A stretch of DNA of 64,000 nt, taken from assembly GCF_020283565.1 (NCBI RefSeq), contig NC_060063.1:22250777-22314776 (forward strand), given 5' to 3'. Made by a program: the position numbers and the translations under genes. The notes beneath the pieces were generated by a model. The model had not been told where the DNA came from. It made no database searches and was given only the letters and a program-made list of their open reading frames with translations. Shown here one piece after another: positions 447-59,253 of this stretch. The stretch is from Trifolium pratense (taxonomy: Eukaryota > Streptophyta > Magnoliopsida > Fabales > Fabaceae). How positions within the stretch are numbered: position 1 is the stretch's first letter; every line of letters begins with the position of its first letter.

Positions 447-3400
447 ACTTGGATGTTGGCGAAACCTTGGAGGAAGCAAAAAGCAGATGGCTTCGTCCGA
501 ACGAGATTCAAGCCATACTCAGCAATCACAAATATTTTACTATCCATGTCAAGCCATTGCATTTGCCGAAAAGTATATTTCTATCGGAAGCAACTTGACG
601 TTTATTGCATTTAAATGTATTTCCATATATACTATACATCATCAATCATATTTATTCGTGTCTGTTTCCACTTCTATTTCTTAATTTGCAAGAAACAAGT
701 TGTTAATTAGCATCTAAATGACAAGTTTTCACCTGATTATGAATTAAACGATGTCAGTCAAACATGATTTGAGTGACTGATGCAAATTTATTATAATGCT
801 GTGTGTAAAACAGGTGGTACTGTTGTACTATTTGACCGCAAGATGCTTAGGAACTTTCGAAAAGATGGCCACAACTGGAAAAAGAAAAATGATGGGAAAA
901 CTGTTAAAGAAGCTCATGAGCATTTAAAAGTGAGGATTTTAAGTGTTTTGTGGTAGCACGCAGCGTATTGACTGCATACAATGTTTATGTTTATTCACAT
1001 TTTTATCATTCAATAACTATGTTCATTCTCTTATCTTTGTCAACAGATTACACTGTTTGTTTTTACTATAATTTTTTTTTCGTCCTACCATTTTTGTTAT
1101 ACTTGATTTTGATGTTAGTTTAGATACTATTGATTAATGTATCTGATTGTTGACATGTTTTCTGTTCATTCTGATTTGCCTCTATCAATCAGGTTGGTAA
1201 TGAAGAGAGGATCCACGTATATTATGCACATGGCCAAGATAACCCAAGCTTTGTTCGAAGATGTTATTGGTTGCTTGATAAGTAAGTATATCAATTTTTA
1301 GCTATGCATATTCATATCTGTGATCTAGTAAAAAGAAGTCTGCAAATAGTAAAGTGACTTACGATTGTTGTTACTGTTTTCCTTTCAGGAGTTTGGAGCA
1401 CATAGTCCTTGTTCATTATCGTGAAACACAAGAGGTCATGTTAATCATTTTCTTTTTTTCCTTTGCCTCTTAAAATTTTAACTTCACCTGACAAATAATG
1501 ATGTAAATATTGCTTTGTCCGATAGAAAGACTCAAAGACCCTACGAGTATTGTTGTGTTGCCATGTTTACCAATGAATGTGTTTAAGGGTATCTCATGTC
1601 TCAAAAAACTTCGTCACCAAATTTGTCTCTAAAACAAGCATGTGATCTATTTATTTATTGAAGAGGTTTGTCTTGCTAACATTCATTAGGTTGTCGATTG
1701 ATACAGTCTCAAGGTTCTCCTGTTACACCGGTGAATTCAAATTCGAGTTCTACTTCTGATCCAACTACACCGTGGATTCTATCAGAAGACTTAGATTCTG
1801 GAACCAACAGTGCTTATACTAATGGTGAGAAATGACATCTAGTATAATCAAATTTCTTTCATGTTATGCTCGTCAGGCAATCGACATGAAAATTTTATTC
1901 AGTATTTACCTCTGCCCCTAAATATAAGCACATTTTGGAAAATAAATTTGTACTTAAATATTATCCGTATTTTAAATTACTAGATATATTTATTATTTTT
2001 TCTAAATATACTCCTTATTAATACACTACTAATCTAATTTGTCTCGAGAGATAAAGTCAGAATTGAACACATATATACTCGATGAAAATTTAGTAATATT
2101 CATACACAAAATGTACACATTAATTGCACTGTCAACCTTAATTTGTTATGATATATTGTTGTCGTAGATATGTTTGTTTCCTTGACTGTGTATACATATT
2201 TTCATTTCTGTAACTGTTTTTGGTGGAGATAAACAGGGCTCAATGGGAATTCAACCGTCGAAAGTCATGAACAGAAGCTTCACGAGCTTAATACACTTGA
2301 TTGGGATGATTTGGTGGCTTCTAATGCTAACACTCCCACTATACATAATGGAGGTAACTATTTGCGCTTTATCAAAACCACTGAACAGTGACTTGTTGGG
2401 AAAGAACCTTACGGTTTTATGCTTTAAATTTAACTTTCGGCAGGCAATGAACCGGCTTTCTATCAACTAAATCAAAGCTTACTAAATGGAAGCTTTGGCA
2501 ATGTAAGATAATACGTCCTTTCATTTGTGTTCTCTATTCTGCTCAATCTCGTGCTTCCGCTTTCTTTTTTCTAGTGATATCGGCAGTGTACAGTTATATT
2601 GTTCTAACCTATAGGAGTTTTTATTACCAGGTTCCTTCGTTTAGCAATCCAACTCCGCCTGAGTCTGGGATTAGTCATGTTTCTTACAGTTTTCCAGAAA
2701 GTGTTAACCTTCAGAATAATCATCCTCTGACTTTTGGCGGTGTTGATTCCATGGAGGACACTTTAGTCAATGAAGGTTTGCAAAATCAGAACAGCTTTGG
2801 AACGTGGATGAACAATGCCATAACTGATACAACATGTTCCGTAGAGGCGTCGCCTCTTGAATCATCAATTCCTTCATCTGTTCCTGATCCATTTTCATCC
2901 CTGCTGATGGATAATAATCAGCAATCTTCTCTACCAGATCAAGTATTTCATCTTACTGAGGTGGCTCCTGCATGGGCTTCTTCCACTGAGAAAACAAAGG
3001 TTTCCTTTTGCTTTTACTCACACGTCTAGTTGCAATTAATTATTTTGTTGTAGCATCCTTTTTTCATGCTAAATGTAATATTTAGTTTCTTAGTTGATTT
3101 CTATTGGGAAAAACCGAATTCCCACATTGAATAGAGATAAGACCTGAAATGAGTTTATTAAGTGGCACAAAGCACAGACAAAGACACATCGACACCGATA
3201 ATAATTTGAGAAAATGACACAATTCAATGAAATCATAAGTGTTGGTGTCGGACACCGGCACGTGTCTGAGACCGGGACACGCCTAATCCAAGGAGTGTCC
3301 GTGCTTCATACTGGCACCTCACCTTCGAAGCCATTTTGTAAGGATGATTTAAGTCAAACTTTAAAACTTAATGATATCAGAGCCTATCCATTGAGCCACC

Positions 3401-6209
3401 ACTATTTATATTGATGCATCAAGCTTAATAGTGTGGGCGTGAGGGGTGTATTTGACAAAACCGAACTTCTATATTGAATAGAGATAAGACTTGGAATGAG
3501 TTTATAAGAGGGACATCCCTCACCTTACAATCCAGTTTTGTTAGGATGAGTTAGACCCAATATAAAAACCTATTAATTTCTCAGAACTAGAACTTTCGTT
3601 CAGTTCCGGAATATACTATTCTCATGAGCTATATAAAAAGCATTTTCATTAGGTGCCATGAGTAACACTCTGCATGCATGTATATTTTAACTTGTGATTT
3701 CCCGCCTTATGATCAAGTTGTGTGTTTGCTACTATTATTTTGCAATTATAACCGGACATTCTTGTTTTTATTTCTTACAGGTCCTGGTAACTGGATATTT
3801 TCACAATGATTATCGACATCTTGCAAAGGCCAATCTAGTGTGCATCTGCGGCGAAACAAGTGTTCCTGTAGAAATTGTTCAGGTTGGAGTTTACCGATGC
3901 TGGGTATCACCGCAATCTCCTGGATTTGTAAATCTTTTTTTGAGCTTTGATGGTCATAAACCTATCAGTCAAGTTGTTAATTTTGAGTATCGAACTCCTA
4001 TTTTGCACGATCCTGCTGCTTCAATGGAAGAGACATACAACTGGATTGAGTTTCGACTTCAGATGAGGCTTTCTAATTTGCTTTTTACAACACCAAAGAC
4101 CATTGATGTTTTCTCTAGTAAAGTATCACCTACTGCACTGAAAGAGACTAAAAAGTTTGCCTCCAAAACATTATTTATTCCCAAAAGTTTGAAACACTTT
4201 ATGAAGTCGTCTGACGCAAATGCAATTCCATATCCACATGCAAAAAATACCTTGTTTGAAATTGCGTTGAAAAACAAACTAAGAGAATGGCTTTTGGAAC
4301 GAATTGTCTTAGGATCCAAGGTTACTGAGTATGATGCACAAGGCCAAGGTGTACTTCATTTGTGTACACTTTTGGGATATACTTGGGCTATTGCTTTGTT
4401 TTCATGGGCAGGCCTGTCGCTTGATTTCCGTGACAAATTTGGATGGACGGCTCTTCATTGGGCAGCATATAATGGAATGTATGATTCACAGACACCCTAC
4501 TCGTTTGAACATTCAGCTTTGTTGCAACATTGATCTAAATAATTTTCCTAGACTAAACCATCAATTTAGTCTTCTAAGTACCACTCTCTCGTACTTAGTC
4601 CTAAAGTATATAAAAATATTAAGTAGTCCTTCAATTATATGAAATATGTCAAGTTAGTCCCTAAAGAGACAATTTCGTATAGTTCAGGGACTAACTTGAA
4701 AGATTTTATATAGTTTAAGGACTACTTATCACTTTCATACAGTTTAGAGACCGAGTAAGAGAGTGTGATATTTGAGGGACTAATTGATGGTTTACTCATT
4801 CTATACATAAGCATTTTCTGATATGCATTTTTCCCCTTCTAATATGGTTTTGAGCCTGAACAGACATATCATTGTTTGTTTGTTTGATTCAAAATTTGTC
4901 TTCAGGGAGAAAATGGTTGCAACTCTGCTGTCTAGTGGGGCAAAGCCCAATTTGGTCACAGATCCAACTCCACAAAATCCTGGTGGCTGTACTGCTGCTG
5001 ATCTTGCTTATATGAGGGGCTATGATGGTTTAGCGGCTTATCTTTCTGAAAAGGGTCTGGTTGAGCAGTTCAATGACATGAGCTTAGCTGGAAATATCAG
5101 TGGTTCACTCGATACCTCGACAAATGATCCAGTAAATCCTGAGAACCTTACCGAGGACCAGATGCACCTAAAGGATACATTGGCAGCTTACCGAACAACA
5201 GCTGAGGCAGCAGCACGCATACAAGCTGCATTTAGAGAGCACTCGCTGAAATTGCGATATCAGTCGGTTCAATTTCTTAGCCCAGAGGAGGAAGCGCGCC
5301 AAATAGTAGCAGCAATGAAGATTCAACATGCCTTTCGCAACTTTGAGACAAGAAAAGCGATGGCAGCCGCTGCTCGGATCCAGTATAAATTCCGTTCATG
5401 GAAGCTGCGTAGAGAGTTTCTCAACATGCGACGTCAGGCTATTAAAATTCAAGTAAGAGCTGCTCTTTTCGTCTCTGTTATTGTTGATTGTCCTGATATT
5501 TTCTCTTTAAATTGTTATTATAATTTACATAATCTTGAAAATCTTGTTTGCTTATATTTCCAATGCAGGCTGCATTTAGGGGATTTCAAATGCGTAGGGA
5601 TTACCGTAAGATTCTATGGTCGGTTGGAATTCTTGAGAAAGTAATCCTGCGTTGGCGTTTAAAGAGAAAAGGTTTCCGCGGGCTTGAGGTGAATCCCGAC
5701 GAAGACATGAAAGATGAGAAGCAGGAAAGCGATGTAGAGGAGGACTTCTTTAAGACCGGTAGGAAACAAGCAGAGGAACGTGTTGAGAGATCAGTGGTAC
5801 GCGTACAAGCCATGTTCCGTTCTAAGAAAGCGCAACAAGAGTATAGCAGGATGAAGATGGCACATAGTCAAGCAAAGGTGACTAAAATGACATAAATGAT
5901 ATTTCGATGTACAAATTTAACAACAAATATCAACGACAACTTAGATGGTTAACGTGTTCAAATATGTGATTAATTTCGTTATGTGGATGGTTAATGCTTG
6001 CGAGTTGCGACACATTTTTTTCTATTCATCAACCATCTACTAAACGTAATTAACCATGTATTTGAACAGTATTAACTATTTAAATTCTTATTAACTAATT
6101 TGATTTGACATAGTTATTAACTTGGTAGAATTGCTTTGTGCAGTTGGAACTTGAATTAGAAGAACTCATCAATTCTGATGTGGACATGTCAACACCAAAG
6201 ACATCATAG
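447..6209 (+). CDS. CAMTA5-like: Calmodulin-binding transcription activator, CAMTA5/6-like (5' partial)
   Basis: A nuclear transcription factor that binds CGCG-type elements and calmodulin in calcium and cold/stress signalling (family knowledge). I read exons 447-572, 814-929, 1193-1281, 1389-1434, 1707-1824, 2237-2353, 2444-2502, 2631-2999, 3781-4478, 4906-5452, 5569-5877 and 6144-6209. All junctions are GT-AG and keep phase, giving about 885 codons; the family has about 920. Domains in order: CG-1 DNA-binding domain in exons 1-4 (RWLRPNEI, FDRKMLRNFRKDGHNWKKK, CYWLLDKSLEHIVLVHY); a variable region; a TIG/IPT fold at the start of exon 9 (VLVTGYFHNDYRHLAKANL); ankyrin repeats (GVLHLCTLLGYTWAIALF, GWTALHWAAYNG); three to four IQ motifs (RIQAAFREH, KIQHAFRNF, RIQYKFRSW, AAFRGF); and the calmodulin-binding helix ILRWRLKRKGFRGL. 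At the exon 9/10 junction the usual YGREKMV reads NGMEKMV. Reading through the last intron would instead stop at 5895. The N terminus lies outside the window. Confidence 0.95.
3103..3576 (+). mobile_element. TRIM-type retrotransposon in CAMTA intron 8
   Basis: Two related arms (3113-3368 and about 3455-3576) share ATTGAATAGAGATAAGAC, GAGTTTAT and CTCACCTTACAA-like blocks. They flank a core with a tRNA-Met-type primer site (TGATATCAGAGCC near 3374) and a purine-rich GGGCGTGAGGGGTG near 3435. That is the plan of a terminal-repeat retrotransposon in miniature, with LTRs of about 120 bp once the nested insert in the left arm is removed. No protein is encoded. Ends are approximate. Confidence 0.6.
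3169..3309 (+). mobile_element. MITE-like element nested in the TRIM left LTR (copy 1)
   Basis: Terminal inverted repeats AAAGCACAGACA at the left and TGTCCGTGCTTC at the right. TGGCAC flanks it at 3163-3168 and 3312-3317, consistent with a short target duplication. The same sequence occurs in opposite orientation at 11006-11168. Confidence 0.55.
4554..4794. mobile_element. Palindromic MITE in CAMTA intron 9
   Basis: Ends TAAACCATCAATTTAGTC and GGGACTAATTGATGGTTTA are inverted repeats of each other. Inner arms (AGTCCCTAAAGAGAC and GTTCAGGGACTAACTTG) also pair. It has no coding capacity and lies wholly within the intron between exons ending at 4478 and starting at 4906. Confidence 0.65.
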
Positions 6210-17765: not shown

Positions 17766-18943
17766 ATAGTAGTATTGAAATTTTCCTCCGTTTTATATTA
17801 TAAATAAATAAAAAAAATACATACTTATTAAGAAAAGTAAAATAGAATAATTTAAAATTAGAATTTGTGTTTTACTTGAAATAAGTTTCATGGAAAAAAG
17901 AATTTACAAACACGTTTTTACTCGTGATTTGAGTCCTTTTTTCAAAGAATTTTATACACATGCCATGTCCAAAAGGTTTCTCTTCTCATATGGCTTTGAC
18001 AATTAATTCACATAATTCACATGAGAAACCAAAAACTCAAATTCTACATAGACAATTGATGATTTATAGTTGTACCATTAATACTAATAATATGCAAATT
18101 TGGACGTTATTAAAAACATTCTATAATGAAATAGGCGATGCAACATTCTATTAATAGTTGTACAGAAAATTCACATCGTTAAGGAATATTCTTTTTATTG
18201 CAAACATTAATTTTATTATATTTATTGTACCGTAAAAATATCCAAAGCAATGTTTTATATTGGATTTAATCATTTATTATATTATATTTTATTTGCATAT
18301 GTATAGAAAGACTATGAAAGGAATGAATTAATACCAAGTTGATTGCGATATAACTTGACGGGATCAATGATATTCTTTTCTTAGAGTGGATTAAATTTAT
18401 TTGATTAGGTTAAGATTATTTTATGTATTAATTTTTTATTTATTTAGAGAAGACCAATAATTTGTACCAAAAAAAAAAGAGAAGACCAAGAGGAGGAAGA
18501 GAATTGTTCAAAAAAAAAAGGAGGAAAATAGTACAATTATTTTAAGACATTTATACGAGATTTTAAGACATTCTCCTATTTTTTATTAATTTTCCTATTT
18601 TTTTTAATCTATTTTATTTGTTATATTTTTTATCGTGGTTTTATACTTTTATTTTAAGACATTTATACGGGATTTTATACTTTTACTCATATATTAATAC
18701 ACAGACTTATTTTTTTGTATTTTTATGTGGCCTGTATTCTTTTTATTTTGTTATTTATATATGATCTATTTTTTTAATTTATGTGAGAATTTTGCACATG
18801 TATTATTTGGGGATATATATGCACATGGCGGTCGAACTATTAATTATCAGAGAATTCTTCCCCTAAGAACAAGATGGTAAATACCAAAAAGTATATATTT
18901 TTGATAAACGAACCAAAAAAATATATCATTATAGGAACCGTAT
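17766..18943 (+). repeat. Helitron-like repeat, middle copy, left part
   Basis: Begins CATAGTAGTATTGAAATTTT and runs nearly colinear with 30701-31917. At 18943 it is broken by the 1948-bp LTR element and resumes at 20892. The uninterrupted form, GGAACCGTATGTTTGTTCAT, stands at about 31907. Confidence 0.75.
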
Positions 18944-19319
18944 TGACGCAGTACGGAAGCGCTAGGTTAGCAAAACGCTAAACCTAATGGATAAAGACAA
19001 GCCGCAAACACAAACTTGTCAAAATAGGGTTTCGGAGTCCACCGAAAGAGTAATTTGGAATCCACCAAATTTGAGAAAAATCTCTAAATTTTTATTGAAT
19101 CAAAAGGTTTTCTTCAAGGCTACAATAGTTTAGCTTAAATAGGAGTGAAAAATAAAAATAACAAATCTCCTAAAAGATTGTAAAAGAAAATAACAAACCT
19201 AACTAAATAAAAATAACAAATCTACCTAAAATATAAAAATAACTAATCTATGTGAAATATAAAAATAAGAAATCTACTTAAAATATAATAAAACTAAATC
19301 TATCTAAAATAATAAATTA

Positions 19320-20444
19320 CTAAAGAAACTCTCCTACATCAGTCTCCTCTACCTCAAAAGAACTCGACCCCGAGTTCTCATCTTGATACTGACTCATGCG
19401 TTTATCATAGTAGAAACTTAGTATTGGTTCTGCTTTAATTATCAAATTCTTTCTCGTTTGCTTGATTACTACTTTTTGCTCTTCCTTTAGTCTTGCCTCA
19501 TACTGACTCTTTTCTTCTTTAAAAACTTGATTTTTATCCTCTAACTTGAGATAATAGCTTGTTAATCCGTTTAATAACTCCACAAGGGCGGTAGAACTTA
19601 TATACATAACATGAGAGTACCGATAAATGTTCACAAGTTTCTTTGTTTGTGTTGTCCTTAAGGTTGCATCATATTGCGTTGCCGATGACGATAAATTTGT
19701 TACACGGCATTCTTTCTCCTTTGTTTCTTCATCAATTACTGGCGTCGCATCTATTTGGATGTCGCAATCCATGTCATTGTTGTTCTCGTTGAAACTACCC
19801 TCCAATTCTAGATTGAACACTCTTTCCTCATCGATTGTAGTTTCTACCATTTTAGACTCCACATCTGTTTGATCCTCTTTCTCTGAATCATCATGTTCAT
19901 CGATCTCTTCCTTCTCATCTTTCGATTCATCAACTTCAACCAAAGCATCTTGTTCAACAACTACTTCGGTTTCTTTCGGTTTGGATTTATAAGCAGGATC
20001 GTCAAGTTTCTCGGGAAGAGATGGTTGGTTATCATCTAGGGTTTCGGTAGCTATGTGGCGTAGATGAAAATTATTGGCATGATTGTTGTTATTGGCATTA
20101 TTGAAGATGCTAAATGCTTCCTCAAATTTAACATTAACATACCAATTAACATAAGTTATCAAAACAGAATGTTTAGCAACATCTTTAATCGTTTTACGCG
20201 AGTTACCTGCCATTCTGTAAGCATGCCTCAAAAGGCCGGACAACGAGTAATCTTTGTTGTAACAAAACGGACAACGATATGTCGAATCAGAGATTTTAAA
20301 CTCGTAGTAATCATCCTTCAACCTTTTGTAATATCTACGCTCATAATATTCCAAATCAGATTCACCACGAGTATGTTCTGATTTTATGTACGTAACAATA
20401 TGGTTGTTATTGCAAACCCTAATAACCGGAATTGATTCTCCCAT
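19320..20444 (-). CDS. zf-XS domain protein captured by the LTR element
   Basis: 374 aa from ATG 20444, about 36 nt inside the primer site, to TAG at 19320-19322. Residues about 30-99 look like the zf-XS zinc finger: LEYYERRYYKRLKDDYYEFK, then YRCPFC with Cys58 and Cys61, LLRHAYRMAG with His74 and KHSVLITYV with His92. In plants this domain occurs in SGS3, IDN2 and FDM proteins of RNA silencing and RNA-directed DNA methylation (family knowledge). Those proteins also carry an RNA-binding XS domain, which I do not see here. Residues about 145-230 are very acidic (Glu/Asp/Lys), and residues about 285-350 look like a coiled coil, as in the dimerising tails of SGS3/IDN2. There are no internal stops. 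The stop and the last six residues lie inside the 3' LTR, and the polypurine stretch is coding. A silencing-related role is inference. Confidence 0.8.
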   Translation of the reverse strand: MGESIPVIRVCNNNHIVTYIKSEHTRGESDLEYYERRYYKRLKDDYYEFKISDSTYRCPFCYNKDYSLSGLLRHAYRMAGNSRKTIKDVAKHSVLITYVNWYVNVKFEEAFSIFNNANNNNHANNFHLRHIATETLDDNQPSLPEKLDDPAYKSKPKETEVVVEQDALVEVDESKDEKEEIDEHDDSEKEDQTDVESKMVETTIDEERVFNLELEGSFNENNNDMDCDIQIDATPVIDEETKEKECRVTNLSSSATQYDATLRTTQTKKLVNIYRYSHVMYISSTALVELLNGLTSYYLKLEDKNQVFKEEKSQYEARLKEEQKVVIKQTRKNLIIKAEPILSFYYDKRMSQYQDENSGSSSFEVEETDVGEFL

Positions 20445-20479
20445 GTCTGATCACGTTAGGAAAAGAACAGGAGAAACCT

Positions 20480-20491
20480 GCTCTGATACCA
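20480..20491 (-). promoter_or_regulatory. tRNA-Met primer binding site of the zf-XS element
   Basis: Minus strand TGGTATCAGAGC, two bases from the LTR end; complementary to the 3' end of initiator tRNA-Met and the most common plant LTR primer site. Confidence 0.9.
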
Positions 20492-20891
20492 ACTGACGCA
20501 GTACGGAAGCGCTAGGTTAGCAAAACGCTAAACCTAATGGATAAAGACAAGCCGCAAACACAAACTTGTCAAAATAGGGTTTCGGAGTCCACCGAAAGAG
20601 TAATTTGGAATCCACCAAATTTGAGAAAAATCTCTAAATTTTTATTGAATCAAAAGGTTTTCTTCAAGGCTACAATAGTTTAGCTTAAATAGGAGTGAAA
20701 AATAAAAATAACAAATCTCCTAAAAGATTGTAAAAGAAAATAACAAACCTAACTAAATAAAAATAACAAATCTACCTAAAATATAAAAATAACTAATCTA
20801 TGTGAAATATAAAAATAAGAAATCTACTTAAAATATAATAAAACTAAATCTATCTAAAATAATAAATTACTAAAGAAACTCTCCTACATCA

Positions 20892-21174
20892 CGTATGTTT
20901 GTTCATATGTTAATACAGAGACATATTTTTTATTTATAATATATACTAGGTTCTATATTTATTTTATTCGAAGGATATTGATGTGAAAATTAACTAATAT
21001 AAGATATATTATATTATTTGGACTTTTTTTTAGGGTTTAATGTACACATGACACACTCATATCAATCCTCTTCTAGCATTATTTTGACATTATTATCATA
21101 ATCAAATTAATAACAAAGTTGATCTTTCTATCATTATTATGCTTCAAAAAAATAAAAGGAAACAGAGCAAATAT
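20892..21174 (+). repeat. Helitron-like repeat, middle copy, continuation
   Basis: Continues the repeat after the zf-XS element (GTATGTTTGTTCATATGTTA, GGATATTGATGTGAAAATTA). It departs from the third copy after about 21010 and is cut by the chromovirus at 21174; flanking sequence resumes at 30153. Confidence 0.65.
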
Positions 21175-23421: not shown

Positions 23422-23545
23422 ATAGTGGTATCAGAGCCTGGTTGGTTCGTGTGAACCAATTAGGACTTTTCTTTTCCCCGTATGAGCATGTGTAGGGAAC
23501 ACTGTTAGTACTTTCTAACGTCTAGTTGTGATTCGTTCAGGAATC

Positions 23546-26500
23546 ATGGCTGCTGCAAGAACGAATGCTCAGATTGCGGAAGCTTTGGCCGCACTCACCA
23601 ACATTGTGGTTAGAGATCATCAACCTGGAAGAGAGGTAGAGATGAGGTTGGAAAGGTTCATGAAGCAGAAACCGCCAACGTTTACCGGAGGTTACAACCC
23701 GGATGGAGCTCACAAGTGGCTGGAGGAACTTGAGATAATTTTTGAAGCAATGGATTGTTCCGAGGAAGGGAAGACAACCCTTGGGACATATGTGTTGCGC
23801 GAGGAAGCGAATGTGTGGTGGAAGAACGCCAAGTTGAGGCTAGGACCCGGTGGTATGGCTATACCATGGGCAATGTTTAAAAGAGAATTTTTGGTTAAGT
23901 ATTTTCCTGTGGATGTGAAGAATAAGAAGGTGGTGGAATTCATGGAGTTGAAACAGGGAAATATGACGGTAGCTGACTATGCCGTCAAGTTTGAGACTTT
24001 GTGTGCATTTAGCCCGCATTACAACACTATGGAAGCGGAGAACGACAAGTGTGTGAAGTTTGAAAGTGGTCTACGTCCAGACATTAAGCATATGATTGGA
24101 TTTTCACAGATAAGGGATTTTGCGACCCTTGTGAACAAGAGTACGATCTGTGATGAGGATGGTAGAGCTAAGGTGAACTACTATAAGGCTGTGAACGACC
24201 GAAAAGGGAAAGGGCAAGAGCGCGGAAAACCTTATGATAACCGCGGTAGGGGTAATACAAGTGGAAGTAAGAAGCCGATGAATGGAAGTTGTTATAACTG
24301 TGGAGAACGGGGTCATATATCTTATGATTGCCCGAGGAAGGGAGATAGGTGTAAGAATTGTGGAAAGCTGGGCCACAAGACCGAAGTGTGTAGGACGAAA
24401 GTGGTGTGTTTCAACTGTGGAGATGAAGGCCACAAGAGTCTGACTTGTAAGAAGCCCAAGAAGGTGATGGGCAAGGTGTTTGCTTTAAGTGGAGAGGATG
24501 CTAGCCTTGAGGACAATCTCATTAGAGGTACGTGTTTCATCTATGACACTCCTTTAATTGCGATTATAGATACGGGAGCGACGCATTCTTTTATTTCTTT
24601 GGATTGTGCGAAGCGTCTTAGTATTCCTTTAACGGATATGATGGGTAGGATGGAAATAGAAACTCCTGCTAATGGTTCAGTGATTACCCGACAAGTATGT
24701 CGTAACTGCCCCGTAACCATTTTTGGTAGGCATTTTGGTATGGATTTAGTGTGTATTCCACTTAGTGGTATGGATGTGATTTTTGGTATGAATTGGTTAA
24801 TCTTCAACCGAATTCATATCAACTGTCGTGAGAAGGCCGTTGTTTTTCCGAAGCCGGAGGAGAACTTGCATTTGATGAGCGGGAAGGAAGTATCGGAAGC
24901 GTTGAAAGAACATGCCGAGATGTTCATGATGTTTGCATCATTGAAACTCGAAGGAGGAGTTAAGATAGAAGAGTTACCGATCGTTTGTGAATTCCCAGAT
25001 GTGTTTCCGGATGATATATCTGACGCGCCTCCAAAGCGAGAGGTAGAGTTTTCTATCGACCTAGTACCTGGAACTAGTCCGATATCGATGGCGCCGTATC
25101 GAATGTCAGCGTCAGAGTTGAATGAATTGAAGAAGCAACTTGAAGAGCTGCTTGAGAAGAGGTTTGTTCGACCGAGTGTTTCGCCATGGGGAGCGCCGGT
25201 ATTGCTTGTGAAGAAGAAAGATGGAAGCATGAGACTATGTATAGACTATCGTCAGTTGAACAAAGTGACGATCAAGAATAAATATCCACTTCCGAGGATA
25301 GATGACTTGATGGATCAACTAGTTGGAGCTTGTGTGTTTAGTAAGATCGATTTGAGATCTGGATACCATCAGATTAGAGTGAAGACGGAAGACATACCTA
25401 AGACTGCATTTAGGACGAGGTATGGGCACTACGAGTATTCAGTTATGCCGTTTGGTGTGACCAATGCACCTGGAGTTTTCATGGAGTATATGAACCGAAT
25501 TTTCCATTCATTTTTGGATAGATTCGTGGTGGTGTTCATTGACGACATTTCGATTTACTCAAAATCCGAGGAAGAGCACGAGGAGCACTTGAGGATTGTT
25601 TTGCAAGTCTTGAAGGAGAAGAAGTTGTATGCCAAGTTGTCGAAGTGTGAATTTTGGATGAAAGAGGTAAGTTTCCTAGGGCATATAATTTCAAGTGGAG
25701 GAATCGCGGTAGATCCTGCGAAGGTTGACGCTGTGTCACAGTGGGGAACGCCGGAATCTGTTTCAGAGATTAGAAGTTTCCTTGGTTTAGCCGGTTATTA
25801 TAGAAGATTCATCGAAGGTTTTTCGAAGTTGGCTTTACCGTTAACCAAGTTGACGAGGAAAGATCAAGCGTTTGTTTGGGACGGTAATTGTGAGGAGAGT
25901 TTCCAAGAGCTCAAGAGAAGATTGACTACTGCACCCGTGTTGATTTTACCTGATGCCAAAGAGTCGTTCGTCGTGTATTGCGATGCTTCGAAGTTAGGAC
26001 TTGGTGGAGTGCTTATGCAAGGGGGTAATGTGGTAGCATATGCTTCAAGGCAACTGAAGGTTCACGAGAGGAACTATCCAACGCATGATTTGGAGTTAGC
26101 CGCTGTGGTGTTTACTTTGAAAGTGTGGAGACACTACTTGTATGGATCGAGGTTTGAAGTGTTTAGTGATCACAAGAGTCTGAAGTACTTATTCGACCAG
26201 AAGGAGTTGAATATGAGGCAACGTAGATGGCTCGAATTCTTAAAGGACTACGATTTTGAATTGAGTTATCACCCCGGAAAAGCCAATGTAGTGGCCGATG
26301 CATTAAGTAGGAAAACTTTGCATATGTCATCATTGATGGTGAAAGAGTTAAAGTTGATTGAAGAATTCCGAGACTTGAGTCTTGTGTGTGAGGTTACTTC
26401 TTCAAGTGTGAAGCTTGGAATGTTAAGATTGACGAATCCTTTTCTTGAAGATATTAAAGAACGTCAGAAATCGGATAAGAAATTGATGGAGAAGATGGTA

Positions 26501-27910
26501 CTCATCAATGAAGGCAAGGAGACCAATATCAAGATTGACGAAAGTGGAGTCATGAGATTTCAAGGAAGAGTTTGTGTACCGGATGTACCCGAATTAAAGA
26601 GAATGATCATGGAAGAAGGTCACAGAAGTGGTTTGAGTATTCATCCTGGAGTAACCAAGATGTATCAGGATTTGAGGAAGTTATTTTGGTGGCCGGGAAT
26701 GAAGAGGCAAATTTCTGAATTTGTTTATTCATGCTTAACTTGTCAGAAATCGAAGATTGAGCATCAGAAGCCGTTTGGTTTGTTACAACCAATGTTTATA
26801 CCCGAATGGAAATGGGATAGCATTGCAATGGATTTTGTGGGAGGTTTACCGAAGACCAAGAAAAGTAACGAGGTGATTTGGGTAGTAGTAGATCGTTTGA
26901 CGAAGTGTGCTCACTTCATTGCTATCAGGAAAGGTACTTTGGTGCCTAAGTTGGCCGAGATTTATGTGGAGCAGATTGTGAAGCTACATGGTATTCCAAC
27001 AAGTATTATTTCGGATAGAGATCCGAGATTTACTTCTAGATTTTGGGAAAGCTTGCAAGAAGCTTTAGGAACGAAGTTGAGGTTGAGTTCAGCGTATCAC
27101 CCTCAGACAGATGGTCAGTCGGAGAGGACGATACAATCCTTAGAGGATTTGTTGAGGGCGTGTGTTTTGGAGCAAAACGTGAATTGGGATTCTTGTTTGC
27201 CATTGGTAGAGTTTACATACAACAACAGTTACCATTCTAGTATCGGAATGACACCGTTTGAGGCTTTGTATGGGAGAAGGTGTAGGACACCTCTGTGTTG
27301 GTATGAAACTGGAGAAGGTGCAATTCTTGGACCAGAGATTGTACAAGAAACAACAGAGAAGATTCGGATGATTCGTGAGAAGATGAAAGTGTCTCAGAGT
27401 CGACAGAAGAGTTATCATGATAAGAGGAGGAAGGACATTGAATTCCAAGAAGGGGATCATGTATTCCTACGAGTTAAATCGACTACTGGAGTAGGACGTG
27501 CATTGAAGTCAAGGAAGTTAACATCGAGGTTTATTGGGCCGTTTGAGATTTTGAAGCGAGTTGGGAAAGTTGCGTATAGGATTGCATTACCGCCATCATT
27601 GGCGAATTTGCACGACGTTTTCCATGTATCACAGTTGCGCAAGTATGTGTCTGATCCGACACACGTGATTGAATCGGACGATGTTCAAGTGAGGGATGAC
27701 TTGACCATCGAGACTGTGCCTTTGAGAATCGAAGGAAGAGAAGTGAAGAGGTTGAGAAACAAAGAGATTGCATCCGTGAAAGTCGTGTGGGGAGGACCGG
27801 CTGGTGAGAATGCGACGTGGGAGTTGGAAAGCAAGATGAGAGATTCTTATCCCGATCTGTTTCTAGGTAATTTCGAGGGCGAAATTCTTTTAAGGGGGGT
27901 AGGATTGTAA
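23546..27910 (+). CDS. Gag-pol polyprotein with chromodomain
   Basis: 1454 aa from ATG 23546 (an upstream in-frame GTG at 23528 is not a likely eukaryotic start). Approximate residues: gag about 35-230; three CCHC zinc knuckles at about 249-301 ([42 protein letters not shown]); aspartic protease [10 protein letters not shown] near 339; reverse transcriptase with [20 protein letters not shown] near 561 and catalytic [13 protein letters not shown] near 662; RNase [16 protein letters not shown] near 810; integrase zinc-binding H-H-C-C near 1025-1065 and D,D,E catalytic residues near 1093, 1155 and 1192; C-terminal chromodomain about 1391-1440 ([26 protein letters not shown]). Domain order and chromodomain place it among chromoviruses. 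The TAA stop at 27908-27910 is formed by the first bases of the 3' LTR. No lesions. Confidence 0.97.
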
Positions 27911-35329: not shown

Positions 35330-36885
35330 CAAACAGTTGCTTACAATGATCTTGGTGATCCTATAACAAAGTGTGGTTTTTGTGGAGCATGCATGTGGTT
35401 TCAAGAAAAAAAGAGAAAAGATTGCGCTGCAACCATATCATTTCAATTGTGTTGTGGAAATGGAAAGGTACAACTTCCCACATTGAAAGAACCTCCACAA
35501 CCATTAAGAGATCTTTTGTTTGATAACAATGATGTTGATAGCAAGAAATTCCAAGCTCAACTTAGAACTTACAACATGATGTTTGCATTTACATCTCCTG
35601 GAGCTACAGTGGATAACAGCTACAACATTGGCAAAGGCCCTCCAAACATTCGAATTCAAGGCCAAACCTGTCATTGAATTGGTAGTTTATTGCCTAAAGC
35701 TGGCGATGCACCAAAATTTGCTCAACTGTACATCTATGACACAGACAACAAAATCGAAAATCGAATGCAAGGTCTAAGGTATGTTCACTTAGACCAATCT
35801 TTTTTAAATATTACATTCTATATGATGAATTTGTTGCCTGCTACTTATTTTCATGTCCATCGTTTGTTTCTTCAAATAACATGTAGGAGCTCTAACAAAA
35901 TTGATCCACTCATTGTGAAAAAATTGTCTGACATGTTGTATCAACATAACACACATGTTCAATCATTTAAAATGACAAGAGATATGATAACAGAAGGAAA
36001 TGTACAGGATCTAAAACTCAGACTTCTCTCAGATCGAAAAACAGATGGAAGAATCTACAACCAGTCAACAGTTTCAGAAGTTGCGGCATTAATTCTTGGT
36101 GATATTGACTATGCTGAAGAAAGGGATATCATTATCCAAACTCGAGGTGGCCAACTCCAAAGAATAGATGAATTTCATGCAAGCTACTTATCTTATCAGT
36201 ATCCATTACTTTTTCCTTACGGTGAAGATGGATATAGACCTAAAACTGCTCACAGAGATGATGACCATGATGAAGCGCCAGACTTTAATAAGCGAAATAG
36301 ACTCACTATAAGAGAGTGGTTAGCATATTGAATTCAGACAAGGTCATTTGAAGCCAAAACCTTATTATCTTCTAGAAGACTATTTCAACAATTCTTAGTT
36401 GACGGTTTCTCTATGTTGGAGTCTGAAAGGCTTAAATGGCTTGGAAAGAATCAGTCCAAATTAAGGGTTTCTAAGTATGACAATCTCAGTGGACAAGAAT
36501 CTCAAAATCAAATCCAAGGTTCAAACACCGGTAGAAGAGTTGTGTTGCCATCTTCATATGTTGGCGGTCCTCGATTTATGGATCAATTGTATTTTGATGG
36601 CATGGCTATATCTAGCAAAGTTGGATTTCCTGATCTATTCATCACTTTTACTTGCAATCCCAATTGGCCAGAAATACAGCGATTGTTGGCACCACTTCGT
36701 CAAAAGGCACATGATCGACTTGACATTGTCGCAAGGGTTTTCAAGTTTAAATTTGACAACCTATTACCCGATTTAACAAAAAAAGGAATATTAGGGAAAG
36801 TTCTTGCATGTAAGTTTATGTTTATTATTTTTTACACTTCTCAGCCAAATATGTATTTCTACCTATAACTTTCTGCTTACGTTTT
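35330..36885 (+). pseudogene. Helitron transposase, N-terminal and Rep region (broken)
   Basis: Plant Helitron replicase/helicase protein, which drives rolling-circle transposition (family knowledge). Readable parts: CGFCGACMWFQEKKRKDCAA, LCCGNGKVQLP, AFTSPGA, then IGSLLPKAGDAPKFAQLYIY, HASYLSYQYPLLFPYGEDGY, the conserved RRVVLPSSYVGGPRFMDQLY and FITFTCNPNWPEI of the Helitron-like N-terminal domain. An intron can be read at about 35780-35886 (GTATGT...TGTAG). In-frame stops at 35675-35677 and 36329-36331 both stand where the family has Arg, consistent with CGA to TGA changes. The rolling-circle HUH motif continues into the next segment (GLPHAHILLFLH). Confidence 0.85.
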
Positions 36886-38400
36886 CAGATATGTATACCA
36901 TAGAATTCCAAAAGAGAGGGCTTCCACATGCCCACATTCTCCTCTTCTTGCATCCTTCAAGTAAGTATCCTACTCTTAATGACATCAACAAAATCATTTC
37001 TGCTGAAATATCATCTGTACAACTTGGTCAAAACTCATATGATGCATGGTCCATGTGGAATAGTCAATGACAGTTCTCCTTGCATGAAGGATAATAAATG
37101 TTCGAAATTTTATCCAAAGAAATTCCAACCAATAACCGTTGTTGATCAAGAAGGTTTTCCTGTTTATAGGAGAAGGGATAATGGTTATACAATTGACAAA
37201 AATGAAATTCTTCTGAATAATCGTCATGTTGTGCCGCACAATCCTCAATTGCTTTTGAAGTATCATGCACACATTAACATGGAATGGTGCAATCAAAGCA
37301 GTTCAATCAAATACCTTTTCAAGTACATCAACAAAGGTTCTGATCGAATTAGTGTTGTTATCGTTCCATCTGACATAAATTCAGAATCTCAACCAATACC
37401 ACGTGATGAAATTAAACAATATCTGGATTGTAGATACATCTCACCAAGTGAAGCATGCTGGAGAATATTTGCCTATTCCATACATGGTAGAAAACCGGCT
37501 GTTGAGCGAATGTTTTTTCATGACAAAGGACAAAACTCAGTTTATTACAGAGACTATGAGAAAATTGGGAATGTTCTACTTAAGCCGAGTGTGACTGAAT
37601 CAATGTTCACTTCATGGATGCAAGCCAATAAAGTCTGCCCAGCTGTCAAGTTGCTAACATATGGAAAATTTGTTGAAAAATTTGTCTACATTAAAAAAAC
37701 AAGAGCATGGCTACCAAGAAAGAAAGGATATACAATTGGTAGATTGATGTGGGTTCCACTACTAGTGAATTGTATTATTTAAGAATGATGTTGACCATTG
37801 CAAAGGGACCAACAAGTTATGTGGATATCAAATTTGTTAAAGGTTTTCAATATCTTACATTTAGGGAAGCATGTTTTGCTATGGGATTTCTTGGTGATGA
37901 TAGGGAATACATTGCAGCCATAAGAGAAACTCGCCAATGGGGTTTCGGTATCTTCTTGCGCAAGTTATTTATCAAAATGCTTCTATCTGAATCTATGGAT
38001 AGACCCGATTTTGTGTGGCGTGAATCTTGGAAATGGTTATGTGATGGAATACTATATAAACAAAGACATCTAACCCAAAACCAAGGTTCTTTTTTTGAAT
38101 TTACAATTTTAAATCTTTTTCTTTCATTAAAACTGGCGTTCTGGACAATGCTTTTCAATTCATTGATTTTTTTTTTTTTTAGATTTATTACTCACAGATG
38201 AAGAACTGCAATATCTCACACTATTGAGATTGAAAAGCACCTACAAACAAATAATCGAAGCTTACACCAGTTTAAATGCATGCCTTTTTCTACTGGATAT
38301 GTTACTGATTTATTGGGAAATTTATTGATATATGATGAAAGAAACTATGATCCTGTCGAACAGGATCAAATTTTCCAACAATTATTTGCTACTCTAACAG
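36886..38400 (+). pseudogene. Helitron transposase, Rep C-terminal and linker region (broken)
   Basis: Continues after a probable intron at 36811-36888: EFQKRGLPHAHILLFLHPSS (HUH-type His-hydrophobic-His), HGPCGIVNDSSPCMKDNKCS, then CSKFYPKKFQPITVVDQEGF, KYLFKYINKGSDRISV, CRYISPSEACWRIFAY and MDRPDFVWRESWKWLCDGIL. The reading frame changes near 37015-37030, near 37752 and near 38224. Each is a small indel within an otherwise well kept family sequence, so the copy died fairly recently. Confidence 0.85.
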
Positions 38401-38484
38401 GTATTACTAAATATGCTATACTACCTATAAATGATTAAGTTGTTTACATTTTCAACACTTTACTTTTAATTTTTCTTTCTTTTT

Positions 38485-40003
38485 TACGTCTTAATAGATG
38501 AACAACGATGCATATTTGAAAAAATCATGGAAGCTGTTACTAATCAAAAGGGTGGAGTTTATTTCCTGTACGGCTATGGCAGCACCAGCAAAACTTTCAT
38601 GTGGAGCACCCTGGCTTCTGCTTTGAAATCAAAACGAAGCATCGGGCTAACCGTTGCATCTAGCGGTATTGCATCTTTATTACTACCAGGTGGAAGAACA
38701 ACTCATTCCAAGTTCAAAATACCAATACCGATTCTTGAAAAAGATATTTGCAAAATTGACAAAGGAAGTGACATTGCTGAATTGTTAAAATTGACTCAGT
38801 TAATCATATGGGATGAAGCACCAATGGCACATAAGTTCTGTTTTGAGGCATTGGATACTTCTTTGAAAGATATCATGAGCATCGATGGTGTTCCATCAAA
38901 AGAAATTTTTGGTGGAAAAGTTATAGTGTTTGGTGGTGATTTTAGACAAATACTCCCTGTAATACCTAGAGGTACTCGATCTGATATTGTCCATGCAACT
39001 TTAAATGCCTCTTATATTTGGGACCATTGTACTGTTTTCAAACTGACAAGAAACTGGAAAACCAACAAACATCGGAAAATTCAGAAGAAGTTAAACAATT
39101 TTCAGATTGGATATTAAAAGTTGGTGATGGAAAGTAGCTGAACCAAATGACGGCATTGCAGAAATTCCAATCCCATCTGAACTTTTACTTTCAGATTTTA
39201 ATGATCCAATAGATGCAATTGTGAATAGCACATACCCCAATTTGCTTAATAATTTTAAGAATGGTGATTACTTGAGAAGTAGGGCAATTTTAGCATCTAC
39301 AATTGAAGTTGTTAATGAAATCAATGATTACGTTCTTAATCTCATTCCAGGTACGTTTTAATCCCTAACTATCTTACATAGAATTTTTTACATTATTAAT
39401 ATCAACACTATATTATTTTCCAGGTGAAGAAATGGAATATCTAAGTTCTTATTCAATTGATCGAACTGAAGCAAATGACGACGACATTTTTGAACAACTA
39501 ACACCAAAATTCTTACACTCTCTGCATACATCTGGACTACCTAATCATGCAATAAAACTCAAAATTGGCACACCAATCATGTTACTCAGAAATCTAGACC
39601 AGTTTGAAGGATTGTGCAATGGAACAAGGTTAAGTATTACTAGACTTGCAGATCACGTCATTGAAGCAAAAATTATAATTGGAAAAAATATTGGCAACCT
39701 GATGTACATCCCAAGAATGCCTATGTCTCTGTCACAATCCCCGTGGCCATTTAAACTTTTGCGAAACAATTTCCAATTATGGTCTCTTTTGCAATGACGA
39801 TAAACAAATCTCAAGGTCAATCCTTAGATTATGTTGGTTTGTACTTGCCAAGAGAAGTTTTCAGTCATGGCCAACTTTATGTCGCTTTGTTTAGAGTTAA
39901 AACCAAACAAGGACTTAAGATATTAATACATGACAAGTCCAAAGCTCCATTGAATGACACAACAAATGTTATTTTCAAGGAAGTGTTCCAAAATATTCTC
40001 TAA
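38485..40003 (+). pseudogene. Helitron PIF1-like helicase domain (broken)
   Basis: Superfamily 1B helicase part of the Helitron protein. Visible: Walker A region GYGSTSKTFMW at 38572-38604, Walker B LIIWDEAPM, FGGDFRQILPVIPRGTRSDI, LTRN, then after frameshifts near 39060 and 39130 SDFNDPIDAIVNSTYPN, GTPIMLLRNLDQFEGLCNGT, and SFAMTINKSQGQSLDYVGLY, FSHGQLYVALFRVKTKQGLK to the stop at 40003. Family Walker A is GGTGKT; here both invariant Gly positions read Ser, so ATP binding should be lost. Another shift lies near 39760. An intron fits 39351-39423 (GTACGT...TTCCAG). Confidence 0.88.
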
Positions 40004-57262: not shown

Positions 57263-59253
57263 ATGGCTTATCTCGGCGATACAAGTCAAATATTGGTAGA
57301 TACTACGGATGTTTTTACAACTCATCAAAAAATTGCTACCCCAGATGATGTTGTCACATGGGCTCGAGATGTTGGAGATGCCAATAAAGTCGGTATTATC
57401 ATTACTCGGTCGGATAAAAAGAACGGAATAAGAGGAAGAAATGACAAGTTGATTTTGGGTTGTGACAAAGGTGGAAAGTATGACTCTTCAGAAAGTTCCA
57501 CGACAACTGCATCGAAAAAGTGTACTGTCCATTTAAAATTAGAGTTGCACCTTCAATAGATGGTTCAAGATGGAAAGTTCAGGTTATTCATGGAGTTCAC
57601 AACCACGGGCTACCTGACCAATATCGTGGTCATCCTCGCAAGGCACGTTTAACCGCTGATGAAAACAAACGTGTTCAAGATTTGACAAAGCGTAAAGTAG
57701 CACCAAGGCACATTATTTTAGATTTGAAAGATCAAAATCCAGAGTCTGTTGTTGATGCCACACTTATATATAGGAAAAGACACATTATGCAAATACAGGA
57801 AAGAGGCTCCAAAACAGAGCTGCAAAACTTACTGCAGTGGTTAGATGATGCAAAATATGTCAGCCGGAATAGAAGAAAAGATGATGGCTTCGATGTTTTG
57901 AGTGATATTTTTTGGGCACATCCAGATTCAATCAAGTTGTTGAACTTGTTTCCCATTGTTTTGGTTATTGACTGCACATACAAAACTAATAAATATAGAC
58001 AGCCACTGCTTGAAATTACTGGCATAACGTATTTGCTGTTGGATTTGCTTACATGGAATCTGAGAAGACGGACAATTATCATTGGGCGTTAGGTAAGTTG
58101 AAGGAATTGGTTACTAAGCAAGATATATTTCCTAGAGTAATTTTGACCGATATGGAGTTTTCTTTGATGAATGCAATTAAAGATATATTTCCAGATACTA
58201 CTAATATGCTTTGTACGTGGCACATAATCAAAAATGTGAATACGAGATGCACTCTGCATATACCTAAGGATATGCAACAGAAGGTGAAAAATTTGTGGAG
58301 AGATGTTGTTGAAAGTCCAAATGAGGTGGAGTACCAGCAGCGGTTGAATGCGTTTCAGCAAGCATGTGTTAATTGAAACAAGTTTGTCGATTATGTCAAT
58401 AACACCTGGTTGGCCCCTCACAAAGAACAATTTGTTGCAGCATGGACCAATCGACTGATGTATTTAGGAAACACAACGACTAATAGGTATGATTTTTTTA
58501 TTTCAAAATTGTAATTATATTTTTCTTTTTTTGGCGTTTAATTGACTATTGTTTGCAATTTGATATTTAGAGTCGAGTCTGCACATTGGAAACTGAAGCA
58601 AATGTTGGAACACAGCAAAGGAGACTTATGCAAGTCTTTGGAAACAATGAATAACAACATAATACTACAAGTTGACAAAATTAAGAAGTCTTTTCAAAAG
58701 AGTTTTTATTATGCAGAGAAGACACACAACAGTCCATTTTTTTAATATTTGAGAAACTTTGTCTCCAGGGCCGCTATGACACTAATTTTTGATTAGATGA
58801 AGAGAATTGGCATTGTTGAAACAGATAAAAACTTGTGTGGTTGCAAACTTAGGTCAACATGTGAGTTGCCTTGTGCTTGTGAATTGAGTGGATATACAAC
58901 CAGTGGTGTACCGATACCATTAGATTCAGTTCACGGTCACTGAAAGAAATTAACTATGGAAGAACCATTGGAGGATGACACAGAGGATGGATATGAGTTG
59001 GACATGAGTAATGGAATGGAGGCAATATGGACTCGATTTCGATCACTTGATATTGTTGGTAAAAGAGCGTTGAAGAGTAAAGTGTTTGAACTTGCTTATC
59101 CAGCCTCAAGTTCATTGTGTCCACCACCTGAAAAAATAAAAACCAGAGGAGGAGTGAAGAACAAAGATAAAAGAAAAGCACCAAAGGGTTATGATGTGTA
59201 TCGTGATCCATCATATTTTGAACATGTTGAAAGAGAATATGGTGATTCACAAG
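57263..59253 (+). pseudogene. MULE transposase with FAR1-type DNA-binding domain (broken)
   Basis: FAR1/WRKY-GCM1-type DNA-binding part (VVTWARDVGDANKVGIIITR, then CPFKIRVAPSIDGSRWKVQV, IHGVHNHGLP), MULE transposase core (PIVLVIDCTYKTNKYRQPLL with the first catalytic Asp, VILTDMEFSLMNAI with the second, LCTWHIIKNV) and a SWIM-type zinc finger (CGCKLRSTCELPCACEL). Frameshifts lie near 57520 and near 58040. In-frame stops follow ACVN at 58374-58376, at 58743-58745, after LIFD near 58790 and near 58940. A real intron fits 58489-58570 (GTATGA...TTTAG). The last segment (58956-59253, MEEPLEDDTEDGYELDMSNG) joins in phase, through GT-AG 59254-59354, to the OTU exon below. Confidence 0.85.

What the first reader, a model, noticed from the sequence alone, without database searches (positions are those of the whole stretch)
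18944..20891. Very young LTR retroelement whose only gene is a zf-XS (silencing-type) protein
Seen: two apparently identical 398-bp LTRs, CGTAT target duplication, tRNA-Met primer site, and a 374-codon open frame filling the interior. Residues 58-92 show the Cys-x2-Cys...His...His pattern of zf-XS, followed by an acidic linker and a probable coiled coil. Known: zf-XS occurs in SGS3, IDN2 and FDM proteins of post-transcriptional silencing and RNA-directed DNA methylation. Inference: a mobile element has captured and spread a gene from the machinery that normally silences it, and could act as a decoy or dominant-negative partner. An XS domain is absent, which would fit a decoy.
Basis: partly seen in the sequence, partly recalled or inferred. 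Interest (0 to 1): 0.88.

Follow-up and report, generated by a model that had tools for sequence, protein, structure and literature searches.

The report
Jumping gene carrying host-gene patchwork
A recently inserted 1.9-kb jumping element in what is almost certainly the red clover genome carries one patchwork protein stitched from the element's own coat-protein start, the front end of a plant gene-silencing factor and a microtubule-protein domain; it belongs to a family that keeps swapping such host pieces, but nothing yet shows that it fights silencing.

Summary
Confirmed: window 18944-20891 is an intact minus-strand LTR element with identical 398-bp LTRs, CGTAT duplication, tRNA-Met-type primer site and a 374-codon frame ending inside the LTR. 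Pfam finds zf-XS (E 1.5e-5) and, inside the supposed coiled coil, a second captured domain, TPX2 (E 7.5e-9). The zf-XS part is an FDM4-like N-terminus fused behind a Ty3-gypsy Gag start; one junction is shared by Trifolium and Medicago relatives. This copy's mosaic LTR fits template switching between two co-packaged RNAs. The decoy idea is not supported: the IDN2 parts known to bind dsRNA and partners are missing, one recently active subfamily lacks zf-XS, 14 of 30 related loci have shortened frames, and dN/dS corrected for mutation bias is near neutral (0.78-0.89; zf-XS 0.64, not significant). Weak constraint remains possible. Best reading: a serially gene-capturing, non-autonomous, Bs1-like retrotransposon family.

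The parts
18939..18943 (.). target-site duplication CGTAT, left copy
18944..19341 (-). 3' LTR, 398 bp, TGATGTAGGAG...TACTGCGTCA in sense
   Evidence: 0 mismatches to the other LTR
19342..19360 (-). polypurine-rich tract CTTTTGAGGTAGAGGAGAC just before the 3' LTR
   Evidence: sequence; the same or nearly the same tract in the sister copies for which one search placed the second LTR correctly (not L004, L010, L012, which lie in arrays)
19320..20444 (-). 374-aa chimeric ORF; last 22 nt lie inside the 3' LTR
19401..19556 (-). TPX2 domain, residues 297-348, second captured host domain
   Evidence: Pfam PF06886, 35.8 bits
20166..20273 (-). zf-XS domain, residues 58-93, presumed zinc ligands C58 C61 H74 H92
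   Evidence: Pfam PF03470, 25.6 bits; positions
20118..20390 (-). FDM4-like-derived segment, residues 19-109 (residues 2-91 of FDM-like P0027)
   Evidence: 73.6% identity to P0027; tree
20391..20444 (-). shortened Gag leader, residues 1-18 (MGESIPVIRVCNNNHIVT; the T stands where FDM Met1 would be)
   Evidence: junction table; Gag homologues P0099, P0080
20480..20491 (-). primer-binding site TGGTATCAGAGC (tRNA-Met type, recalled)
   Evidence: the same 12 nt in L073, 5' of a gag match
20494..20891 (-). 5' LTR, 398 bp
20494..20579 (-). 3' end of the 5' LTR (LTR positions 313-398, probably U5): 86/86 identical to L062, L063 (F2) and L002, L003 (F1), but 50/86 to L004, the nearest copy over LTR 1-280
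20892..20896 (.). target-site duplication CGTAT, right copy

Best explanation
The feature is a recently inserted copy of a non-autonomous LTR retrotransposon family of red clover and its relatives that serially captures host coding pieces. An ancestral element fused the Gag N-terminus of a Ty3-gypsy element to the first ~90-140 residues of an FDM4-like silencing-factor gene (shown by homology, junction and tree). A later lineage also carries a TPX2 domain (shown). The window element encodes no recognisable reverse transcriptase or integrase (shown), so it is probably mobilised in trans by gag-pol elements of the same genome that share its LTR ends, primer site and gag start (sharing shown for one 5' end, mobilisation inferred). 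New combinations arise when two different element RNAs are packaged together and reverse transcriptase switches template; the mosaic LTR of this copy is the footprint expected of such a switch (pattern shown, mechanism inferred). The chimeric protein is most likely a passenger or at most weakly constrained (inferred).
For: Structure. Domains. FDM homology starts at FDM residue 1-3 in the rows that reach that end, runs to about residue 91 in most full rows and to 142 in P0036 and P0007, while XS begins at 143 in P0027. 20 rows, counting both halves of P0001 and the window, share the Gag-FDM junction; 6 of the 20 keep FDM's Met, the rest have Thr. Tree: 32 element rows against 13 FDM rows, one branch, 98/92; Medicago rows P0022 and P0039 lie inside. 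Gag leader: P0099 begins MGDQPVTRADFD and continues into gag and protease. Own genome: the window lies in G000, 413.6 Mb; 125 protein matches, 110 of 366 candidates scored; F1: 16 of 30 loci with frames of 360 aa or more; F2: 23 of 25 listed loci with open frames of 436-450 codons; F3: 11 listed with 349 (assigned by match pattern, sequences seen for L061-L063, L065, L068 and L064). They share LTR start, PPT and PBS, with one T/C change in the PBS of F3 copy L064. A gag match lies in a 1459-codon frame at C7:34008986; its 5' flank L073 has a U5 84/86 identical, the same PBS and the F2 gag start. Mosaic LTR.
Against: No transcript, VLP or transposition evidence. The partner's close match is U5, PBS and leader; over a longer stretch identity is only 79% with gaps, and its match list shows one TAG in the first gag part. 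The U5 donor is not identified: F2 and two F1 copies carry the same U5. The TPX2 donor gene could not be looked up (search unanswered), and the captured FDM part lies within one host match of residues 1-311, so capture through RNA is not proven by intron loss. Of 4 loci for which target duplications were computed, L002 shows none. Site-wise conservation (rho 0.41, P 2e-4) and zf-XS omega of 0.46-0.58 between subfamilies leave room for some function.
Confidence: 0.82

Rival explanations
1. Anti-silencing decoy: the zf-XS fusion binds a partner of FDM/IDN2/SGS3 proteins or their RNA and weakens silencing of the family.
For: Presumed zinc ligands kept in 27 of 30 F1 loci and in 23 of the 26 protein rows that cover all four; element sites vary where FDM sites vary (rho 0.41, P 2e-4); idr mutants, whose proteins lack zf-XS, behave differently from idn2/fdm, so the domain may matter (PMC3935573, passages).
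Against: XS and XH, and with them the parts with known binding roles in IDN2, are not found; F3 is recently active without zf-XS; corrected dN/dS near neutral; 14 of 30 F1 loci have shortened frames of 116-324 aa.
Confidence: 0.1
2. Substitute Gag: Gag leader plus zinc finger plus long helix joins the partner's particles and helps package the non-autonomous RNA.
For: F2, F3 and L034 keep the gag start and leader in frame with the rest; Gag homology of the leader; long predicted helix 254-334.
Against: 15 of the 16 open F1 frames, the window's included, start at a shortened leader; no capsid or CCHC domain by Pfam in the window protein; the F3 relative P0015 has no zinc finger by Pfam; near-neutral evolution.
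Confidence: 0.14
3. A host zf-XS/TPX2 gene that happens to be flanked by repeats.
For: A close relative is annotated as a gene in Trifolium pratense: P0001, LOC123914841.
Against: Identical LTRs, target duplication, primer site and polypurine tract; dispersed copies, 28 of 30 loci with at least one LTR match over 250 bp; P0001 reads as two element ORFs in a row.
Confidence: 0.02

Closest known systems
Maize Bs1 (PMC13317346, passages)
   Same: LTR retroelement whose chimeric ORF is built from several host gene pieces
   Different: Here a Gag leader fused to an RdDM-factor domain is shared across subfamilies and two genera; cargo varies between recently active subfamilies; a gag-pol relative with a near-identical U5 was found
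Gene-bearing TRIMs such as GmaRetroS15 (PMC4717578, passages)
   Same: Small LTR elements with exon-only host fragments
   Different: TRIMs are described there as without coding capacity; here a 374-codon frame and 398-bp LTRs
VANDAL anti-silencing factors, Fu et al. 2013 (title in the reference list of PMC13317346; the name VANC is recalled)
   Same: A mobile element carrying a protein that touches host silencing would be the parallel if the decoy idea were right
   Different: DNA transposons with an anti-silencing factor shown by its authors; here an LTR element, untested, with no clear sign of selection for such a role
FDM/IDN2/SGS3 proteins
   Same: N-terminal region with zf-XS, 73.6% identical to FDM-like P0027
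   Different: XS and XH not found; Gag leader in front, TPX2 behind

Membership tests
LTR retrotransposon | LTR pair, short target duplication, primer site after the 5' LTR, polypurine tract before the 3' LTR | tested here: met
Non-autonomous LTR retrotransposon | No reverse transcriptase, integrase or protease domain | tested here: met
   Pfam scan of the only long frame, limit E 10; the 81- and 105-aa frames were not scanned
Bs1-type gene-transducing retroelement | Host-gene pieces in one ORF between the LTRs | tested here: met
   FDM4-like zf-XS and TPX2
Bs1-type gene-transducing retroelement | Captured pieces lack the donor's introns | tested here: inconclusive
   FDM piece lies within one host match of residues 1-311; TPX2 donor search unanswered
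Ty3-gypsy derivative | Gag start, LTR end, PBS and leader shared with a gag-pol element | tested here: met
   leader; L073 beside a gag match in a 1459-codon frame
TRIM | Very small, no coding capacity | tested here: not met
   374-codon frame; definition from passages of PMC4717578
XH/XS (FDM/IDN2) protein family | zf-XS | tested here: met
XH/XS (FDM/IDN2) protein family | XS and XH domains | tested here: not met
   not among the families listed at limit E 10
TE-encoded anti-silencing factor | Lowers silencing or methylation of its element | not testable with these tools
   needs expression and methylation assays

The most novel reading that the evidence does not exclude
The Gag-leader/zf-XS fusion, captured once before the spread of the family through Trifolium and Medicago and still carried with its zinc ligands by active subfamilies, is a trans-acting factor through which an LTR retrotransposon family interferes with FDM-dependent silencing, the LTR counterpart of the anti-silencing proteins of VANDAL elements, while the rest of the ORF is interchangeable cargo.
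Probability: 0.1. Interest if true: 0.9.

Novelty: new variant of a known kind. Interest (0 to 1): 0.62.

Why it matters
It gives a recently active plant LTR family in which the steps of gene capture can be read: gag-pol relatives, a fixed Gag-host fusion point, several cargo versions, and a copy whose LTR records what looks like a switch between two packaged RNAs. The fused module comes from RNA-directed DNA methylation factors, and its zf-XS domain has no settled function; element-borne zf-XS domains without XS are natural material for testing what it does. It also warns that some proteins annotated as zf-XS or XH/XS-domain proteins in clovers and medics (for example P0007, P0009, P0022) look like transposon ORFs.

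Tried and rejected
Rejected: (1) the acidic linker as pol-derived. P0052 joins a protease region to it, but gag-pol relatives fetched (P0061, P0063, P0066, P0069, P0099) continue differently after that point, so its origin is unknown. (2) Raw dN/dS of 0.45-0.52 as purifying selection: it is no longer significant once the mutation spectrum and the exclusion of nonsense changes are allowed for. (3) A first zinc-ligand count with wrong residue numbers, redone; a first ORF listing on the wrong strand for part of the loci, redone. (4) Some family hits as captures: P0016 and P0020 read as host genes run into an element's LTR end and primer site, and P0017 may be a fused gene model. (5) The structural model as a basis for a fold search: pTM 0.30. 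(6) viral contigs: no relative. (7) PDB by sequence: no match to the window protein at E 0.01. (8) The U5 donor as F2 specifically: L002 and L003, which have F1 bodies, carry the same U5. Not achieved: TPX2 donor gene, a census of all zf-XS loci, nucleotide copies from Medicago.

Full report
What is there. The element at 18944-20891 is intact and lies on the minus strand. Its LTRs (18944-19341 and 20494-20891) are 398 bp and identical, the insertion is flanked by CGTAT, the primer site follows the 5' LTR, and a purine-rich tract precedes the 3' LTR. Zero differences in 398 bp mean a recent insertion; with commonly used plant rates (recalled) well under a million years. The one long frame, 374 codons, ends inside the 3' LTR. 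Pfam gives zf-XS at 58-93 and TPX2 at 297-348, and lists neither XS nor XH. AlphaFold gives a poor model overall (mean pLDDT 55, pTM 0.30) with a helix at 254-334, confident at 281-330.

Where the pieces come from. A protein search found 53 relatives; those with a species name are Trifolium or Medicago, apart from one Vicia FDM protein and one Oxalis TPX2 protein. A second search with P0003 residues 1-175 gave 32 rows, 7 of them new. They are mosaics: a leader (MGDQPVTKTEF...NRGGEPIPVIRV), the zf-XS module, variable parts, and a tail (YQDENSGSSSFEVEETDVGGF); not every row has every part. In rows that reach it, the zf-XS module matches FDM-like P0027 from its residue 1-3, in most full rows to about residue 91, and in P0036 to 142 (72.9% over that stretch; P0007 also reaches 142, at 57%); XS begins at 143 in P0027, which is the nearest FDM for 35 of 36 element rows. 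20 rows, counting both halves of P0001 and the window, share the same Gag-FDM junction; 6 of the 20 (P0006, P0007, P0009, P0020, P0021, P0026) keep a Met at the FDM start and 14 have Thr. In a tree of the zf-XS region (45 rows; P0004, P0008, P0016 and P0048 dropped as too short) the 32 element rows form one side of a branch (98/92) against 13 FDM rows, with P0027 nearest and Medicago rows P0022 and P0039 inside. One capture explains this; for many of these rows the LTRs were not seen. In the host genome the best FDM match covers residues 1-311 without a break, so absence of introns in the captured part says nothing about capture through RNA.

The leader is a Gag start. A search with P0052, which holds a retroviral protease beside the linker, gave 154 proteins, 120 listed. 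P0099, annotated in T. pratense, starts MGDQPVTRADFD and continues through gag to the protease region; P0080 of Vicia shows EEPIRVLRGGN where the elements have GEPIPVIRVRNN. In 20 comparisons of element leaders with four Gag starts, z against shuffles ran from 5.1 to 18.1; 19 beat their best shuffle and one (P0022 with P0099) only equals it.

The genome. The own-genome search answered after repeated busy replies: G000 has 413,558,439 bases in 90 contigs. Contig lengths C1, C5 and C7 equal the longest-contig values of P0033, P0088 and P0042, all named Trifolium pratense; the species is thus inferred, not stated by the tool. DNA search: 67 matches, 40 of 524 candidates scored. Protein search: 125 matches, 110 of 366 candidates scored; counts are lower bounds. 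I distinguish F1 (zf-XS + TPX2, the window's type; 30 loci L031-L060), F2 (leader + zf-XS + other cargo; 25 listed, 23 with open frames of 436-450 codons, one cut short, one with a stop) and F3 (leader + other cargo + TPX2, no zf-XS; 11 listed with 349 open codons). F2 and F3 are assigned from match pattern and frame length; sequence was seen for L061, L062, L063, L065, L068 (F2) and L064 (F3). In L061-L064 the LTR pairs are 99.75-100% identical over the parts fetched. F1 keeps a frame of at least 360 aa in 16 of 30 loci; the other 14 have 116-324 aa. 28 of 30 loci of the DNA search have at least one LTR match over 250 bp, many of them only to LTR positions 1-312; of four loci for which target duplications were computed (L001, L002, L003, L022) three match and L002 does not. 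Several F1 loci form head-to-tail arrays sharing LTRs.

How it moves. The window element has no recognisable enzyme of its own. A gag search gave 110 matches, 81 of 2509 candidates scored; one lies in a 1459-codon open frame at C7:34008986-34010620, although the listing also gives one TAG in its first part. The 651 bases 5' of it (L073) hold an LTR that starts TGATGTAGGAGG, a U5 84/86 identical to the window's, the same PBS and ATGGGAGATCAACCGGTGACG, the gag start seen in F2; over longer stretches identity to the window element is 79% with gaps. L074, beside another gag match, has the other U5 type, 96% identical to F3 copy L064 over 238 bases. I therefore infer mobilisation in trans by this Ty3-gypsy group.

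A footprint of template switching. The 5' LTR could be cut out of 18 of 20 copies tried. The window's LTR positions 1-280 are nearest to L004 (274/279), but positions 313-398 are identical (86/86) to L062 and L063 (F2) and to L002 and L003 (F1 bodies), and match L004 at only 50/86. The leader after the LTR is L004-like, and the protein matches the copies at the L004 place best (L032 and L033, 98%). That is what an intermolecular first strand transfer would give: U5 from one packaged RNA, U3 and body from another. Which copy gave the U5 is not known, and recombination in DNA is not excluded. L022/L034, one locus, combines an F2-like full leader with an F1 body, 445-bp identical LTRs and duplication GACGG.

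Selection. Raw Nei-Gojobori dN/dS among the 16 open F1 copies is 0.45 pooled and 0.52 over 8 disjoint pairs. With the observed mutation spectrum and without nonsense changes the disjoint pairs give 0.89 (ORF spectrum, P 0.25) or 0.78 (LTR spectrum, P 0.07); by part, ORF spectrum only: zf-XS 0.64 (P 0.09), linker 1.27, helix 0.89. Four deeper F1 pairs over the whole ORF give 0.76, 0.59 (P 0.04), 0.82 and 1.04; 21 zf-XS pairs give 0.26-0.98 over both spectra, one reaching P 0.04 under one spectrum. Between F1, F2 and the P0020 type, over slightly different codons, zf-XS gives 0.46, 0.48 (P 0.04) and 0.58; six FDM pairs of the host give 0.50-0.96; twelve element-FDM pairs give 0.36-0.70, 8 of 12 at P under 0.05, but these include changes in the host gene. 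The pairs are not independent and no correction for multiple tests was made. At protein level, sites that vary in elements are those that vary in FDM (Spearman 0.41, P 2e-4, 76 sites; 0.27, not significant, over residues 22-55; 0.43, P 0.007, over 56-93; ligands P 0.03), with CCHH intact in 23 of 26 covering rows (10 rows did not cover all four, one of them with Ser at C58) and in 27 of 30 F1 loci. The rows were found by similarity, which favours conserved sites. Some constraint is possible, strong constraint is not seen.

The decoy idea. In IDN2, XS plus coiled coil suffice for dsRNA binding, the zinc finger is dispensable for it, homodimers need the coiled coil and paralogue binding needs XH (PMC3342958, abstract and passages). 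XS and XH are not found in the element. F3 spread without zf-XS. What zf-XS does is open (PMC3935573, passages).

Other cargo in relatives. Pfam or PDB matches: WGR (P0028), pectinesterase (P0031), a USP7-like stretch (P0030), ABC transporter (P0017), and a weak kinesin hit below the cut-off (P0025). Their DNA was not seen, so these may include gene-model fusions.

Literature. Searches, in an open-licence library only and judged from the listings, showed no paper on zf-XS, XS or TPX2 domains captured by an LTR element. Bs1 and TRIM captures are the precedents (PMC13317346 and PMC4717578, passages); a rice and sorghum survey exists (PMC3726574, passages), and PMC7264820 was seen in passages.

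Noticed in passing
window 23528-27910: Open 1460-codon Ty3-gypsy gag-pol frame, apparently of another lineage (gag, CCHC, protease, RT, RNase H, integrase).
   Followed up: no
window 35690-39117: Fragmented frames with a strong PIF1 helicase match at 38527-39117, probably a Helitron remnant (recalled).
   Followed up: no
window 57520-58092: MULE transposase fragment, weak Pfam match below the cut-off; next to it, 59369-60001 looks OTU-protease-like by eye, with no Pfam match.
   Followed up: no
window 2574-5644: Exon-like frames that look like a CAMTA gene (ankyrin/IQ-like) by eye; no Pfam match for the two pieces scanned.
   Followed up: no
G000 C1:46.93-46.94 Mb, C3:25.41-25.43 Mb, C7:8.10 Mb, C2:1.51 Mb: F1 elements in head-to-tail arrays sharing LTRs; the annotated protein P0001 reads as two element ORFs in a row.
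   Followed up: partly
G000 C7:53.58-53.76 Mb and 55.19-55.36 Mb: FDM4-like gene cluster present twice with near-identical matches: a recent segmental duplication or an assembly duplicate.
   Followed up: no
L064 and P0015: F3 carries an unidentified segment between Gag leader and linker, and a longer TPX2 match than the window copy.
   Followed up: no
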